Shown here: positions 37,570 to 43,253 of the stretch, in pieces
How the letters are laid out: every line of letters starts with the position of its first letter
How positions within the stretch are numbered: position 1 is the first letter of the stretch
Assembly (NCBI RefSeq): GCF_001548475.1
Contig: NZ_LRUJ01000010.1
Span: 1-64,000 of the forward strand
Direction: 5' to 3'
DNA from: Bordetella hinzii LMG 13501
GTDB taxonomy: Bacteria > Pseudomonadota > Gammaproteobacteria > Burkholderiales > Burkholderiaceae_B
Length of the DNA stretch: 64,000 bases
Notes under the pieces: model-generated
Told to the model about the DNA's origin: nothing
The model's database searches: none
Seen by the model: only the letters and a program-made list of their open reading frames with translations
Made by a program: the position numbers and the translations under genes

Positions 37570-37864
37570 TCGGCAGGGCCTGGTGGCCCGCCATGGTTGT
37601 GCTCCCGGTTGGTGTATTCGGACACGTAGGACGTAGCGGTAGGCTGCCGGTTCGCCGGCGCCTACCGGCGCCATTTGAAATGGCTCGCGCCCGCGCGGGG
37701 GCCATATCAAATGGCTGTGCTGAATTCATTAGCGCAAGCCGTAAAGAACTGCCGCCCGCAAGGGGCAGTGGCATGCGCCGATGAATAGCCCGGGTGCGGT
37801 TCGCCGTTGGCGCTCCGTGACACGGGTTTAAGTTCTGGGACCCCTGAACCTAAGGAGCATGACC
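37570..37864 (+). other. Non-coding region between nrdB and the H1-like gene, with several structured elements
   Basis: No plausible gene lies here. In order it holds GGGCC-TGGT-GGCCC just after nrdB (37576-37589), a hairpin closed by GGTAGGC/GCCTACC with an inner GCCGG-TTCG-CCGGC stem and one bulged T (37638-37666), a pair of 15-bp palindromes listed separately, and ACTGCC...GGCAGT (37748-37769). None is followed by a T-run, so I do not call a standard terminator. The density of symmetric elements suggests a regulated promoter, a structured leader for the H1-like gene, or both. Confidence 0.6.
37670..37715. promoter_or_regulatory. Pair of related 15-bp palindromes, 31 bp apart
   Basis: GCCATTTGAAATGGC (37670-37684) and GCCATATCAAATGGC (37701-37715) share 12 of 15 bases. 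Their starts are 31 bp apart, close to three helical turns, so both face the same side of the DNA. This suggests paired operator sites for a dimeric regulator of the H1-like gene. The regulator is unknown. Confidence 0.55.
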
Positions 37865-38407
37865 ATGGCAACTGCCAAGAAAGCCGCCAAGAAAGCGGTG
37901 AAGAAACCCGCCGCCAAGAAGGCCGCGGCCAAGAAGGCCCCCGCCAAGAAGGCTGCGGTCAAGAAGGTCGCTGTGAAGAAGGTCGCCGCCAAGAAACCGG
38001 CGGTCAAGAAAGTCGCCGCCAAGAAGGTCGCCGCCAAGAAACCGGCCGCCAAGAAGGCTGTCGCCAAGAAGGCCGTGGCCAAGAAAGCCGTAGCCAAGAA
38101 GGCTGTCGCCAAGAAGGCCGTCGCCAAGAAGGCCGTGGCCAAGAAGGCTGTCGCCAAGAAAGCCGTAGCCAAGAAGGCCGTCGCCAAGAAGGCGCCTGCC
38201 AAGAAGGCTGCTGCCAAGAAGGCGCCGGCCAAGAAGGCTGCTGCGAAGAAGCCGGCGGCCAAGAAGCCTGCCGCCAAGAAGCCCGCGGCCAAGAAGGCTG
38301 CCCCCAAGAAGCCCGCCACGCCGCCCTCCACGGCGGCCGCCCCGGGCGCCAAGACCGCGCTGAATCCGGCCGCGTCGTGGCCCTTCCCCACGGGTGGCCG
38401 TCCCTAA
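37865..38407 (+). CDS. bph1: Histone H1-like DNA-binding protein (BpH1 type)
   Basis: The 180-residue product is almost wholly built of Lys-, Ala-, Val- and Pro-containing pentamer-like units ([15 protein letters not shown]), like the C-terminal arm of eukaryotic H1 and the BpH1 protein of Bordetella. It should bind DNA without sequence specificity and help compact the nucleoid. A short non-repetitive tail (about 155-180) follows. I start at the second ATG (37865), since AGGAG lies 7 nt before it but only one base before the first ATG. The repeats make this gene prone to in-frame length changes, which are known for this gene in Bordetella strains. Confidence 0.93.
37880..38310. repeat. Degenerate 12-15 bp coding repeats within the H1-like gene
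   Basis: Units of the type GCCAAGAAGGCC and GTCGCCAAGAAGGCC recur across most of the gene. Lengths are multiples of three, so gain or loss of units keeps the frame. Confidence 0.9.
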
Positions 38408-39161: not shown

Positions 39162-40592
39162 TCAAAGACCCGCGTAGATCTCCAGCAGTTTCTTGCGGTC
39201 GGTCTTGTGGTTGTTGGACACCGGCAAAGCCGGGCAGAGCACCAGCTCCGCGGGCACCATATAAGGCGGCAGGCGCTCGGCCAACAGGCGCTTCCATTCG
39301 GCCTGGGCCGCCTCGCCGGCAAAAGCCGGCGCCGGCACATCCGCATCCAGGAAACCGATCAGCCGCACGGCAGTGCCGTCCGGGCGGCGCAAGACCGCGC
39401 AGGCGCCTGCCCGCACGCCGGCCAGGCCATGCAGGGCCGCGTCGATCTCGGACAGCTCAATGCGATAGCCATTGAGCTTGATCTGGTCGTCCATACGCCC
39501 GCGGCAAAAGAGCAGACCGTCCTCGCCCTGCTCGCCCAGGTCGCCCGTGCGGAACCCCCGCCGGCCGTCGCTGGCGCGGAAACACTTGCTCGCGTTCAGG
39601 TCGGGGCGGTTCAGGTAGCCGCGCATGACATGGTCGCCTACGATGCAGAGTTCGCCCTCGTCGACATAGACGCGCGCCTGCGGCTTGGCGTAGCCGATGG
39701 GCAGCGGGTCATGCGCGGCGATCACGGCATCGTCGATGACGATGGCCGTCGTGGCCACCGTGGCCTCGGTCGGCCCATAGGTGTTCAGGATGCGCGCCTG
39801 CGGAAAACGCTGGCGCAGCTTGCGCGCCAGGGCCACGGTCAGCGGCTCGCCGCAGAAGAGAAAGGTATCGAGCGCTGGCAGGACCGCCGGCGCGAAATCG
39901 CGGTTGACCAGCTGCTGGTGGGCGAACGACGGCGTCGACACCCAGCAGCTGATGCCATGGGCCGCCAGGCGCGCATACCATTCGGCCGGCGCGGCGATCT
40001 GCTCGCGGGCATTCAGCACGCAGCTGCCGCCCAGGGCCAGCGTGCCAAATACCTCGTACATGGAGAGGTCGAAGCTGAAGGGGGCCTGGTTCATGAAGAC
40101 CGGCGCCTCGCCCAGTCCAAAACCGCTCATCCATTCACCCAGCAGGGCCACGCTTTCGCGGCCGATCTGCACGCCCTTCGGATCGCCTGTGCTGCCGGAA
40201 GTGAAGATCACATAGGCCAGGCCCTTCTCGTCCAGCACGCTCGGCGCGCCAGCCTCGAAGCGGTCGGTCCGGGCGTCATAGACGGCGCCGGCGCGCACGA
40301 TCTCGACGATGCGGCGCAGCCGCTCGACCGGATAGATGGTGTCCACCGGCACGAAAGGCGCGCCCAGCATCAGCGCACCGACCATGGCCACGAAGAATCC
40401 GGTCTCCTTGTGGCCGTAGACGACCACCGGCACATCGGCCGTGATGCCCTGCTCGCGGGCCCGCGCGGCCCAGGCCGCGGCGGCCTCGGCCAGCGCCTGC
40501 CAGCTCAGCGCGCCATCGGCGCCCGCCACGGCCAGCGCCTGCGGCGCGCGCGCCGACGGGACGAACTCGAAGGTATTCAGATCAAAACGCAT
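39162..40592 (-). CDS. dltA: D-alanine--carrier protein ligase, DltA-like (draA-type)
   Basis: DltA adenylates D-alanine and loads it on the phosphopantetheine arm of DltC. The 476-residue ANL enzyme has the ATP loop FTSGSTGDPKG, NTYGPTEATVA, the RTGDLGEQGEDGLLFCRGRMDDQIKLNGYRIEL-type hinge (shown in parts) and a C-terminal lysine in NHKTDRKKL. These match DltA rather than generic acyl-CoA ligases. In Bordetella the homologous dra locus adds D-alanine to an outer-membrane component and raises resistance to antimicrobial peptides. It is the last gene of the leftward operon, 11 nt after dltB. Confidence 0.92.
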   Translation of the reverse strand: MRFDLNTFEFVPSARAPQALAVAGADGALSWQALAEAAAAWAARAREQGITADVPVVVYGHKETGFFVAMVGALMLGAPFVPVDTIYPVERLRRIVEIVRAGAVYDARTDRFEAGAPSVLDEKGLAYVIFTSGSTGDPKGVQIGRESVALLGEWMSGFGLGEAPVFMNQAPFSFDLSMYEVFGTLALGGSCVLNAREQIAAPAEWYARLAAHGISCWVSTPSFAHQQLVNRDFAPAVLPALDTFLFCGEPLTVALARKLRQRFPQARILNTYGPTEATVATTAIVIDDAVIAAHDPLPIGYAKPQARVYVDEGELCIVGDHVMRGYLNRPDLNASKCFRASDGRRGFRTGDLGEQGEDGLLFCRGRMDDQIKLNGYRIELSEIDAALHGLAGVRAGACAVLRRPDGTAVRLIGFLDADVPAPAFAGEAAQAEWKRLLAERLPPYMVPAELVLCPALPVSNNHKTDRKKLLEIYAGL

Positions 40593-40603: not shown

Positions 40604-41731
40604 TCAGATCGGACTGCGGCCGCTGAAGACATACAGCGCCAGCGCGGCCAGGATGAGCGTAAGCACGCGGCCGGCGAACTTCACCCAGCCGCGCGCCAGC
40701 CAGGCAGCCAGCGCGGGCCGCGTGCGGGCCGCGTTGACCAGCAGGTTATGGCCCACGGAATAGGCGCCGAACATCATGCCGCTGACCACGTAGTGCAAGG
40801 ACAGCCCGTTCCAGATGCCCATGGCCAGCAGCGTGGCGAAAATGCCGATGTTCTGCGCGGCCAGGCGATGGCGGCCAAAGAAAGCCGTCTTGGACAAGGC
40901 CTTGTAGATGGGCATGAAGATCACATCGCGCAGCCACTCCGACAGGCTGATATGCCAGCGGCGCCAGAAGTCCTGCGGATTGACCGTGGCCAGCGGATTG
41001 CGGAAATTGACCGGCAACACGAAGCCGAAGAACATGCCGATGCCGACCGCCATGCTGCTGTAGCCGGCGAAATCAAAGAACAGATAGAAACTGTAGAGCG
41101 TCGCGTTGGCCGCCACGCCGGTAAAAGAGTAGTCGTGCGCGTCCAGCGTGGACAGGCCATAGCGCCAGATGGCCTCGGCCAGGCCGAACTTCTGGATGAC
41201 GCCCAGCAGCGTCAGTTCCAGGCCGGTCAGCCAGGTATCGAGCGTCACGCCATCGTAGCCGCGCTTGAGATCGGCCTGGAAATTGCGCCAGCGGTACATG
41301 GGGCCGGCCAGCAGCGTGAGCGGAAAAAACAGATAGATGAAATAGTCCAGCGGCGAGACGCGCTCGTTGCGTTGCGCGAACAAGAGCACGTCGATGGCGC
41401 GGAAGGTCGCGAACGACAGGCCCAGCATGGCGGGCAGATGGGTGAGGCCGGTCTTGACCAGCAACAGCGGGGCCATGGTGACGATGACCGAAAGCCAGGT
41501 CGGGATCCACCCGCGCCGGTTGGCCCACAGGGCCGCGCCCGACACGGCGAACAGGCCCACGGGCTGCCAGGGGCGCACGCCGAAGACCGCCAGCCAGATG
41601 AGCACCGACAGCGCGGCGATCACATGGCGGTAGCCCAGCCGCCACGGCATGGCCAGCGATCGATAAAGCAACAGGCCCAGGCCGCCGACAATGGCGCCGC
41701 CGAAGAAGTTCAAGCTGCCGAACAGTTCCAT
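40604..41731 (-). CDS. dltB: MBOAT-family D-alanyl transfer protein, DltB-like
   Basis: DltB is the membrane-bound O-acyltransferase that moves D-alanine from DltC across the inner membrane. The 375-residue product has about ten hydrophobic helices, the MBOAT segments FFDFAGYSSMAVGIG (about 218-232) and DFWRRWHISLSEWLRD (His260), and the near-invariant catalytic histidine in WNGLSLHYVVSG (His313). The ATG at 41731 lies 7 nt after the stop of the tiny dltX-like gene, so translation is probably coupled. DltA, DltC, DltD and the small DltX-like protein are its expected partners. Confidence 0.93.
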   Translation of the reverse strand: MELFGSLNFFGGAIVGGLGLLLYRSLAMPWRLGYRHVIAALSVLIWLAVFGVRPWQPVGLFAVSGAALWANRRGWIPTWLSVIVTMAPLLLVKTGLTHLPAMLGLSFATFRAIDVLLFAQRNERVSPLDYFIYLFFPLTLLAGPMYRWRNFQADLKRGYDGVTLDTWLTGLELTLLGVIQKFGLAEAIWRYGLSTLDAHDYSFTGVAANATLYSFYLFFDFAGYSSMAVGIGMFFGFVLPVNFRNPLATVNPQDFWRRWHISLSEWLRDVIFMPIYKALSKTAFFGRHRLAAQNIGIFATLLAMGIWNGLSLHYVVSGMMFGAYSVGHNLLVNAARTRPALAAWLARGWVKFAGRVLTLILAALALYVFSGRSPI

Positions 41732-41738
41732 GGCCGGG

Positions 41739-41864
41739 TCAGAACTGTTGATATTGGAATTCGACCTTGATCGGCCCGCCGCTGCCCGTGGGGGGCTGCG
41801 CTTGCAGGATGAAGACCAGGATCAGGCCGAGATAAAGGCAGAGATGCCAGAAGAAACGTTTCAT
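41739..41864 (-). CDS. dltX: DltX-like 41-residue membrane microprotein
   Basis: This 41-codon gene lies between dltD and dltB. Its ATG overlaps the dltD stop (ATGA). The product has a basic start (MKRFFW), one hydrophobic helix (about 7-21), a short polar stretch, and the C-terminal hexapeptide FQYQQF. Firmicute DltX proteins are equally short, have one helix, and end in an F-x-Y-x-x-F-like motif whose tyrosine is reported to accept D-alanine from DltB before DltD hands it to teichoic acid. Position, size, topology and terminal motif all agree. It is too short for most gene finders. That it works the same way in a Gram-negative envelope is inference. Confidence 0.85.
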   Translation of the reverse strand: MKRFFWHLCLYLGLILVFILQAQPPTGSGGPIKVEFQYQQF

Positions 41865-43036
41865 CGCGAGAAGAACTCCGCAATGCCCCTGTCGGCCATG
41901 GCCCAGCCCACTTCGGCCAGGTGCATATCGTCGCGCACCATTCCAGGCTGGAAGGGGATGCTGTAGAGATCGAGGCAGCCCATGCCATAGCGTTCGCACA
42001 TGCCCTTGATGGCCGTGACGACCGGATCGAAGCGCTCGACGTCCAGGATCAGCTTGGGATTGAAGGGCTGGATGATGAAATAGGCGCGCACCTTGCGCTG
42101 TTGCAGCAGCGCCATCACGCGCGCCAAGTCGCCCAGCTCGGGCCGGGTCATGGGCGGGACGTCGGGAAACTCGTTGCGCGCCGGCGACGGCAGCATCGCC
42201 AGGTATTTCTGGTAGTAATCGTCGCGCACGTCGTAGGGGTTCTTGCTGCCCAGTTGGCGTTCGACATCGACCGCCTGATCGATCAGTTCGCTCCAGTGCT
42301 GGCCCGACAGGCGGGCCGAGGACGGCCAGGTCACGAACTTGTGCGCCGGCACCGCCAGCGCGCTGCGCGGGCGATCCAGCGCCGGCTGGCTGCGCGCATG
42401 CCACCATGCGGCGACCTTGTCCTTGAACTCGGCGACCTGCCCATTGGCCAGCAGCCACAGCAGCCCCCAGTTGGCGTTGGCGCTGATCCAAGTCTGCATC
42501 TGCTCGCGGGTTGCCTCCCGGTCCCAGAGGCGGTCCCAGACCGGGCCGGTCACATGTTCGGCAAAGGCCGAGCGCGGCAGCTGGCCGCCGGAGGCGAACC
42601 AGGCCGGCGACACCATGACCACCAGGCGGGTATTGGGCGTGAGCGAGTCCGCCACCGACTCCAGCACGCTGACAATGCCAAAGGACTGGAACATGGCGTG
42701 GCCATAGGCCAGCGTCGGCACTTTGAGTTCGCGCGGGAAGAAATGATAGGGAACGAAGCGTAGATCGTGGCTGGAGAGCTCGGAGGACCCCAGCACCACC
42801 AGCGTGCCGTCGCTCAGGGCGCGCGACAGGCGGTTCAGATTGACATGCTGCGTGCCCCAATCCGGCCCCAGATTGGGCAGATAGTTATCCGTGACGGCGG
42901 GCGCACTGGAAATGGGCTGGACGTTGCGGTCCAGGAAACGGTCCGCGGCCCAATAGGCCATCATGGCCAGGACACAGGCCGTGATTGCCGCAGCGATATG
43001 CGACAACAGCCGGGAATTATGTATGGGCAGCGACAT
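41861..43036 (-). CDS. dltD: D-alanyl transfer protein DltD-like
   Basis: DltD is the extracytoplasmic, membrane-anchored esterase-like enzyme that passes D-alanine to the final acceptor. The 391-residue product has one N-terminal membrane helix (about 11-31) and a periplasmic SGNH-type domain: nucleophile in LGSSELSS (Ser84 or 85) and the Asp-His pair in RDDMHLAEVGW (Asp369, His372). The ATG at 43036 lies inside the end of dltC (20-bp overlap), and its stop overlaps the dltX-like start, so all three are translationally linked. In this organism the acceptor cannot be teichoic acid and must be another envelope glycan or protein. Confidence 0.92.
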   Translation of the reverse strand: MSLPIHNSRLLSHIAAAITACVLAMMAYWAADRFLDRNVQPISSAPAVTDNYLPNLGPDWGTQHVNLNRLSRALSDGTLVVLGSSELSSHDLRFVPYHFFPRELKVPTLAYGHAMFQSFGIVSVLESVADSLTPNTRLVVMVSPAWFASGGQLPRSAFAEHVTGPVWDRLWDREATREQMQTWISANANWGLLWLLANGQVAEFKDKVAAWWHARSQPALDRPRSALAVPAHKFVTWPSSARLSGQHWSELIDQAVDVERQLGSKNPYDVRDDYYQKYLAMLPSPARNEFPDVPPMTRPELGDLARVMALLQQRKVRAYFIIQPFNPKLILDVERFDPVVTAIKGMCERYGMGCLDLYSIPFQPGMVRDDMHLAEVGWAMADRGIAEFFSR

Positions 43037-43253
43037 AGCCGGCGAGCGTGCGGACCGACTGCATGTGCTCGGCGATTTCCGGAGCGGGAATGCTGCAGCC
43101 GTACTCGGACTCGACAGCGAGGGTGATGTCCACCGCGGCCAGGGAATCGACCAGGCCGGAGGCAATCAGGGGAGTATCGGCGGTGACTTTCTTCAGGACG
43201 ATCGACTCGACGATCTCGGCGATACGGGTATGGAGTTCTTGCTCAGTATGCAT
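43017..43253 (-). CDS. dltC: D-alanyl carrier protein DltC-like
   Basis: A 78-residue acyl-carrier-type protein with the phosphopantetheine site GLVDSLAAVD (Ser37). It would receive D-alanine from DltA and deliver it to DltB at the cytoplasmic face. The sequence around the serine (VDSL rather than DSLS of fatty-acid ACP) fits DltC-type carriers. It is the first gene of the operon, giving an order C-D-X-B-A that differs from the X-A-B-C-D order of Firmicutes. A GGTATATGG-like AT-rich stretch lies just before the ATG, and a candidate extended -10 promoter is about 65 bp upstream. Confidence 0.88.
   Translation of the reverse strand: MHTEQELHTRIAEIVESIVLKKVTADTPLIASGLVDSLAAVDITLAVESEYGCSIPAPEIAEHMQSVRTLAGYVAAHT

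What the first reader, a model, noticed from the sequence alone, without database searches (positions are those of the whole stretch)
41739..41864. A DltX-like microprotein in a Gram-negative dlt/dra operon
A 41-codon gene, overlapping dltD and 7 nt before dltB, encodes one membrane helix and the terminal FQYQQF. In Firmicutes the DltX tyrosine in such a terminal hexapeptide is reported as the covalent D-alanyl relay between DltB and DltD. Finding it here implies that the whole tyrosine-relay mechanism exists in a bacterium without teichoic acid. Most annotations would skip a gene of this size.
Basis: partly seen in the sequence, partly recalled or inferred. Interest (0 to 1): 0.85.

Follow-up and report, generated by a model that had tools for sequence, protein, structure and literature searches.

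The report
Gram-negative DltX-like acyl-relay microprotein
A 41-residue membrane protein in a Gram-negative dlt operon keeps the tyrosine tail that in Gram-positive bacteria hands D-alanine from one enzyme to the next, so the same relay very probably works here, although this has not been tested at the bench.

Summary
Window 41739-41864 (-) encodes a 41-aa protein ending FQYQQF. It overlaps dltD by 4 nt, lies 7 nt before dltB, and sits in a C-D-X-B-A operon.

It is a real gene. pN/pS is 0.11 over 51 distinct sequences. All 107 DltD loci examined (65 genomes) carry one, each with the tyrosine and final phenylalanine. A motif-matching X also occurs in Photorhabdus, enterobacterial plasmids and a Bacteroidetes MAG.

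In the loci seen, the motif comes in trans where DltB is short. 69 of 71 complete generic MBOATs carry it fused at their own C-terminus; 2 carry near-variants. It most likely works like DltX: DltC to DltB to X-Tyr to DltD.

By sequence it is not a member of Pfam DltX (PF12459). A Gram-negative DltX was mentioned in print in 2017, and tyrosine relay was shown for PatA in 2025, so the claim of a first is too strong.

Unexpected: 42 genomes, the window's own included, carry a second stand-alone dltD2-dltX2 pair with no dltA, B or C found nearby. In 11 of them the operon's DltB is the only MBOAT found without its own motif. One DltB may feed two X-D heads.

The parts
41739..41864 (-). dltX-like microprotein gene, 41 aa, one membrane helix, C-terminal FQYQQF
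   Evidence: conservation
41742..41759 (-). codons of the terminal hexapeptide FQYQQF; Tyr38 codon at 41751-41753
   Evidence: sequence; Tyr and last Phe in 116 of 116 X rows counted (7 rows are repeats of the same places)
41805..41855 (-). predicted membrane helix F4-L20
   Evidence: hydropathy
41861..43036 (-). dltD (SGNH acyltransferase), 391 aa; GSSE and DDMH blocks present
   Evidence: PF04914 E 1.6e-56; PDB DltD entries 6o93, 7dxm, 6pfx and 3bma matched by the profile of ten DltD; alignment
40604..41731 (-). dltB (MBOAT), 375 aa, no C-terminal FxYxxF of its own; His260 and His313 present
   Evidence: PF03062 E 1.4e-14, TIGR04091 E 1.4e-59; 6bug/8jem E 1e-31
43017..43253 (-). dltC-like carrier protein, 78 aa
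   Evidence: PF00550 E 1e-8; TIGR01688 E 2.3e-4, below cut-off
39162..40592 (-). dltA-like adenylating ligase, 476 aa
   Evidence: PF00501 E 9e-56; TIGR01734 E 9.2e-114, below equivalog cut-off

Best explanation
The gene encodes a trans-acting acyl shuttle. DltA loads an amino acid (most likely D-alanine) on DltC. The MBOAT DltB takes it from DltC in the cytoplasm and esterifies it to Tyr38 of the microprotein, whose tail lies at the periplasmic face. The tail then swings to the SGNH enzyme DltD, which takes the group on its serine and puts it on an envelope acceptor that is still unidentified. Shown here: gene, operon, motif, purifying selection, pairing with DltD in all loci read, absence of the motif from DltB and its presence on other MBOATs. 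Inferred: membrane orientation, complex formation, the covalent D-Ala-Tyr intermediate and the acceptor.
For: C-D-X-B-A operon with family-level matches. X next to dltD in 106 of 107 DltD loci; in the 107th (L145) it directly precedes dltB (window). Invariant Tyr and terminal Phe. pN/pS 0.11. Cis/trans dichotomy: 7 of 7 DltB-type loci of the named-genome scan have a separate X and no fused motif, while 69 of 71 complete generic MBOATs end in the motif and 2 end in variants HIYFQF and PIYLQF (anchored recount). Same split inside 11 genomes: 11 of 11 DltBs without, 9 of 9 other MBOATs with FLYFQF. The fused version of this tail is acylated on the Tyr in PatA, and acetyl-FIYANF donates to PatB (PMC12148441 passages). 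A Dickeya dltB mutant is polymyxin-sensitive (PMC3544676 passages).
Against: No match to PF12459 (control B. thuringiensis DltX scores E 2e-21). Profile comparison with 7 Firmicute DltX gives probability 49% and aligns only the helix. A Dickeya dltD mutant is reported to be as polymyxin-resistant as wild type (Pandin 2016, as cited in PMC5541007), which a strict B to X to D chain does not predict. One enterobacterial DltB (L082) has Asn at the His313 position. One genome (G014) keeps intact X frames beside a dltB, dltA and second dltD that look broken, so an intact X alone does not prove a working system. No biochemistry exists for this protein in anything I read.
Confidence: 0.85

Rival explanations
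1. X is a structural or assembly subunit that holds DltB and DltD together; the tail plugs the DltB tunnel but is never acylated.
For: It is linked to DltD also where no dltB was found near, as an assembly factor would be. The phenolic OH is not shown to be used here.
Against: The Tyr is invariant while neighbouring tail positions vary. The fused counterpart is acylated on this Tyr in PatA.
Confidence: 0.08
2. X is a relay, but the cargo is not D-alanine.
For: DltA and DltC lie below the NCBI equivalog cut-offs; DltA specificity was not tested.
Against: The title of Taneja 2013 (J Bacteriol; seen in a reference list) reports D-alanine modification by the B. pertussis dra locus.
Confidence: 0.05
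3. Chance open frame or untranslated remnant.
For: Very short; a longer frame on the same strand masks it in a mechanical ORF list.
Against: pN/pS 0.11, no stop in frame in 51 of 51 distinct X1 sequences, stops in 47 of 51 in the next frame; one such ORF per locus.
Confidence: 0.01

Closest known systems
DltX of Firmicutes (PF12459, formerly DUF3687)
   Same: About 40-50 aa, one helix, C-terminal [FY]xYxxF, dlt operon, DltB without its own motif.
   Different: No significant sequence match. Gene lies between dltD and dltB, not before dltA. Tail FQYQQF rather than FIYNEF. Host is Gram-negative, where teichoic acids are not expected (general knowledge).
PatA/PatB and other MBOAT-SGNH systems with a fused motif
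   Same: Same hexapeptide and, for PatA, a demonstrated acyl-Tyr relay (PMC12148441).
   Different: There the motif is the C-terminus of a longer MBOAT (66 of 71 complete frames 440-560 codons long) and the paper reports no similar carrier protein; here it is a separate protein beside a 375-aa DltB.
Dickeya/Pectobacterium dlt genes
   Same: My recollection is that Pandin 2016 calls the operon dltDXBAC; that paper was not held.
   Different: dltC is last there and first here; DltD 21-25% and DltB 44-46% identical.
Bordetella pertussis dra locus (BP2987-BP2991)
   Same: D-alanylation locus of five consecutive tags (PMC9858536 passage).
   Different: I could not see whether one of the five tags is the microprotein; Taneja 2013 was not held. 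A search for the five tags showed no product names.

Membership tests
DltX (PF12459) | HMM score over the curated cut-off of 25 bits | tested here: not met
   Own genome 0 matches; window protein no PF12459 hit at E up to 10; of five relatives scanned the best, Bacteroidetes L152, has 16.5 bits, E 0.0062
DltX (PF12459) | Terminal FXYXXF with invariant Tyr | tested here: met
   Window FQYQQF; Tyr and last Phe in 116 of 116 rows, first position Phe in 109 and Tyr in 7
DltX (PF12459) | Single helix, N-terminus inside, tail outside | tested here: inconclusive
   One hydrophobic segment and positive N-terminus by hydropathy; orientation not measured
DltX (PF12459) | Partner DltB lacks the motif and the extra C-terminal helices | tested here: met
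   DltB 375 aa ending LYVFSGRSPI; 11 of 11 DltBs without motif; 7 of 7. Helices were judged from length and sequence only
DltX (PF12459) | Gene immediately before dltA, as in most Firmicutes | tested here: not met
   Lies between dltD and dltB
DltX (PF12459) | D-Ala-Tyr intermediate passed from DltB to DltD | not testable with these tools
   Needs biochemistry
DltB / MBOAT | PF03062 over cut-off; DltB equivalog TIGR04091 | tested here: inconclusive
   PF03062 met (54.6 against 27 bits); TIGR04091 E 1.4e-59 but 202 against 375 bits
DltD | PF04914 over cut-off; catalytic Ser and Asp-His blocks | tested here: met
   192.6 against 22.7 bits; G[SA]SE and DxxH in 70 of 70 first-operon rows (7 repeats) and 41 of 42 second-copy rows. 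The NCBI equivalog TIGR04092 is not met (107 against 150 bits)

The most novel reading that the evidence does not exclude
One acyl-loading MBOAT serves two interchangeable heads. DltA, DltC and DltB of the window's operon charge both X1, paired with DltD1, and X2, paired with DltD2 from a distant two-gene locus, so that the same D-alanyl donor is sent to two different envelope acceptors. The Tyr microprotein would then be the adaptor that defines which SGNH enzyme is fed.
Probability: 0.45. Interest if true: 0.65.

Novelty: new variant of a known kind. Interest (0 to 1): 0.52.

Why it matters
It extends the tyrosine relay in its separate-protein form to Gram-negative dlt operons and gives a sequence-level rule for the loci seen: an MBOAT of this kind either ends in the hexapeptide or has a microprotein that does. 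The acceptor of D-alanine in these bacteria is not identified in what I read. The stand-alone D2-X2 pair makes the question of how acceptor choice is made directly testable by gene removal, and shows that D and X can sit as a unit apart from B.

Tried and rejected
Pfam and NCBIfam scans of X gave only a chance PsbL hit. No solved structure matches X. Search for Firmicute DltX through the genomes behind loci L175, L197, L203, L166 and L198 gave none (0 of 5), and 0 of 149 genomes of the class of one of them; Firmicute DltX sequences were then taken from plasmid records (searches gave no annotated DltX). Profile comparison with B. thuringiensis DltX alone aligned 5 residues. The fused-motif test was not anchored at the last residue; the anchored recount gives the same 69 of 71 (68 of them exactly FxYxxF). 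MICRO flags that one search prints for the fused MBOATs are ORFs inside the same frame (one, in L183, lies upstream) and were not counted. The ihfA and merR queries were translated in a wrong frame and are not used. The D tree groups D2 of the two genera (83/80) but has long branches and is only suggestive. Horizontal spread in E. coli: no match in 20,395 records in 'near' mode. No structure prediction was run; the tool models single chains only, so the DltB-X complex was out of reach.

Papers: passages only of PMC12148441, PMC11035591, PMC10903887, PMC11279074, PMC9858536, PMC3544676, PMC9558356; passages and section 20 of PMC5541007. Schultz 2023, Pandin 2016 and Taneja 2013 were not held; what I say of them comes from citing papers or recollection, as marked. 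Searches that could have shown a description of the stand-alone D2-X2 pair or the Gram-negative tail; none of the listings or passages I saw describes them, but listings were capped and most subscription papers are not in the library.

Full report
OBSERVATION. The operon on the minus strand is dltC (43253-43017), dltD (43036-41861), X (41864-41739), dltB (41731-40604), dltA (40592-39162). DltB matches MBOAT and the solved DltB structures (E 1e-31), DltD matches PF04914 at E 1.6e-56, and A and C match at the family level. The window genome has no PF12459 DltX match.

REAL GENE. DltD was searched in the window's family (59 of 268 genomes positive), in an even sample of the phylum (6 of 398), of the order (4 of 399) and of the order of an enterobacterial hit (5 of 295); these samples overlap. 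I read the DltD loci of all these positives (E up to 1e-5): 59 first copies and 42 second copies in the window's family, 5 in one enterobacterial family and 1 in another family of the window's order, that is 107 loci in 65 genomes. Searches scanned 112 locus records (105 distinct places; 7 are repeats) for a short ORF near the dltD stop that ends in the motif. All 112 hold one, starting -3 to +110 nt from the dltD stop. The window makes 106. The last, L145, has X directly before dltB in an X-B-A-D arrangement. Because that scan looked for the motif, one search is the control: among 4,065 short ORFs of 77 loci nothing but X ends that way. Tyr and terminal Phe are invariant in 116 of 116 rows (112 plus four added from L145, L149, L151, L152). 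pN/pS is 0.11 for X1 (51 distinct sequences) and 0.21 for X2 (42); other frames of the same strand give 1.2 to 8.8. One antisense frame also has a low ratio (0.20 and 0.38), as can happen where its third positions mirror those of the coding frame, but 20 of 51 and 19 of 42 sequences have stops there.

CIS OR TRANS. All 7 have an MBOAT without the motif and a separate microprotein beside it. The other 73 are generic MBOATs at 28-36% identity. Two are cut by contig ends; of the 71 complete, 69 end in the motif with hydrophobic first and last positions and 2 end HIYFQF and PIYLQF. The Bacteroidetes locus has D-X-B-A order (D and A recognised by eye from their sequences). The link of G492 to Achromobacter xylosoxidans and of G390 to P. 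versatile rests on equal contig lengths.

SECOND HEAD. 42 genomes of the family, the window's own included (G000:C2), carry a second DltD directly followed by a second X ending FQYQQF, FQYSKF or FQYQKF. tblastn at E 1e-3 finds no dltA, dltB or dltC in these 42 loci of 5.7 to 14 kb; in three of them (L097, L109, L111) one flank is under 3.5 kb. All 42 genomes also have the first DltD; 11 genomes with the same type of first operon lack a second hit, one of them (G483) only 57% complete. The flanks differ: pheS/pheT-like neighbours in 4 of 42, others elsewhere (gene labels are my reading), and a tRNA-Pro beside the pair in the window's genome. SGNH Ser and Asp-His blocks are kept in 41 of 42; the exception, G014, has an internal stop in D2. 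In 11 of the 42 genomes I listed the MBOATs found with PF03062: 11 DltBs, none with the motif, and 9 others, all ending FLYFQF. In two genomes DltB is the only MBOAT found. An X profile finds two X genes in each of the 11, plus one weak hit (E 0.27). The simplest reading is that one DltB serves both heads. That D2-X2 is inactive, or uses another donor, is not excluded.

MECHANISM AND PRIOR KNOWLEDGE. PMC12148441 (passages) describes Dlt: DltC to DltB to DltX-Tyr to DltD, and shows acetyl-Tyr in the fused tail of PatA. It also states that other MBOAT pathways lack a DltX-like microprotein. [quoted passage not shown] So the gene's existence in some Gram-negatives was known. What I did not find in print (searches listed in Tried and rejected) is the shared hexapeptide in Gram-negative dlt operons, its presence beside every DltD read, and the stand-alone D2-X2 pair. 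Against a simple chain: in Dickeya the dltD mutant is reported to be as polymyxin-resistant as wild type while the dltB mutant is sensitive.

FAMILY. By sequence it is not a PF12459 member. Profile comparison with seven Firmicute DltX gives 49% probability over the helix only, and the Bacteroidetes X scores weakly (E 0.0062, under cut-off). Common descent or convergence on the tail is undecided.

VERDICT. A genuine, conserved, very probably functional relay peptide; a new variant of a known kind.

Noticed in passing
G000:C2:196916-197038 and L026:6914-8199: Second, stand-alone dltD2-dltX2 pair in the window's own genome, between pheS/pheT-like genes (label by my reading) and a tRNA-Pro, with no dltA, B or C found in 14 kb.
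   Followed up: yes
L226:3652-7704, L227:3652-7704, L228:1-2243: Complete dltD-X-B-A-C operon with IS transposase genes on both sides on plasmids of Klebsiella electrica and Enterobacter cloacae (100.0% identical over 4,053 bases; the latter plasmid typed conjugative); a K. pneumoniae plasmid record holds 55% of it at the record start plus a second place. X is annotated in the first two as a 40-aa hypothetical protein.
   Followed up: partly
L033 and L029 (genome G014): The main dltB and dltA match in two overlapping pieces in different frames and the second dltD has an internal stop, so this species' system looks decayed, yet both X frames are open.
   Followed up: no
L082 DltB (genome G257): Asn in place of the nearly invariant His at the position of window DltB His313.
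   Followed up: no
L234:3516-4924; L235:3728-4927: dltB genes without other annotated dlt genes in the stretch on Firmicute plasmids, one directly after a bactofencin-type bacteriocin gene: the mirror image of the lone D-X pair.
   Followed up: no
window 37859-38407: Alanine/lysine-rich repetitive protein (KKAVAKKAV units), resembling histone H1-like proteins (recalled resemblance).
   Followed up: no
L031, L047 and other g4 (Achromobacter-type) loci: X1 has a variable N-terminal extension (50-75 aa in all in 41 of 54 X1 rows) before the conserved 41-residue core.
   Followed up: partly
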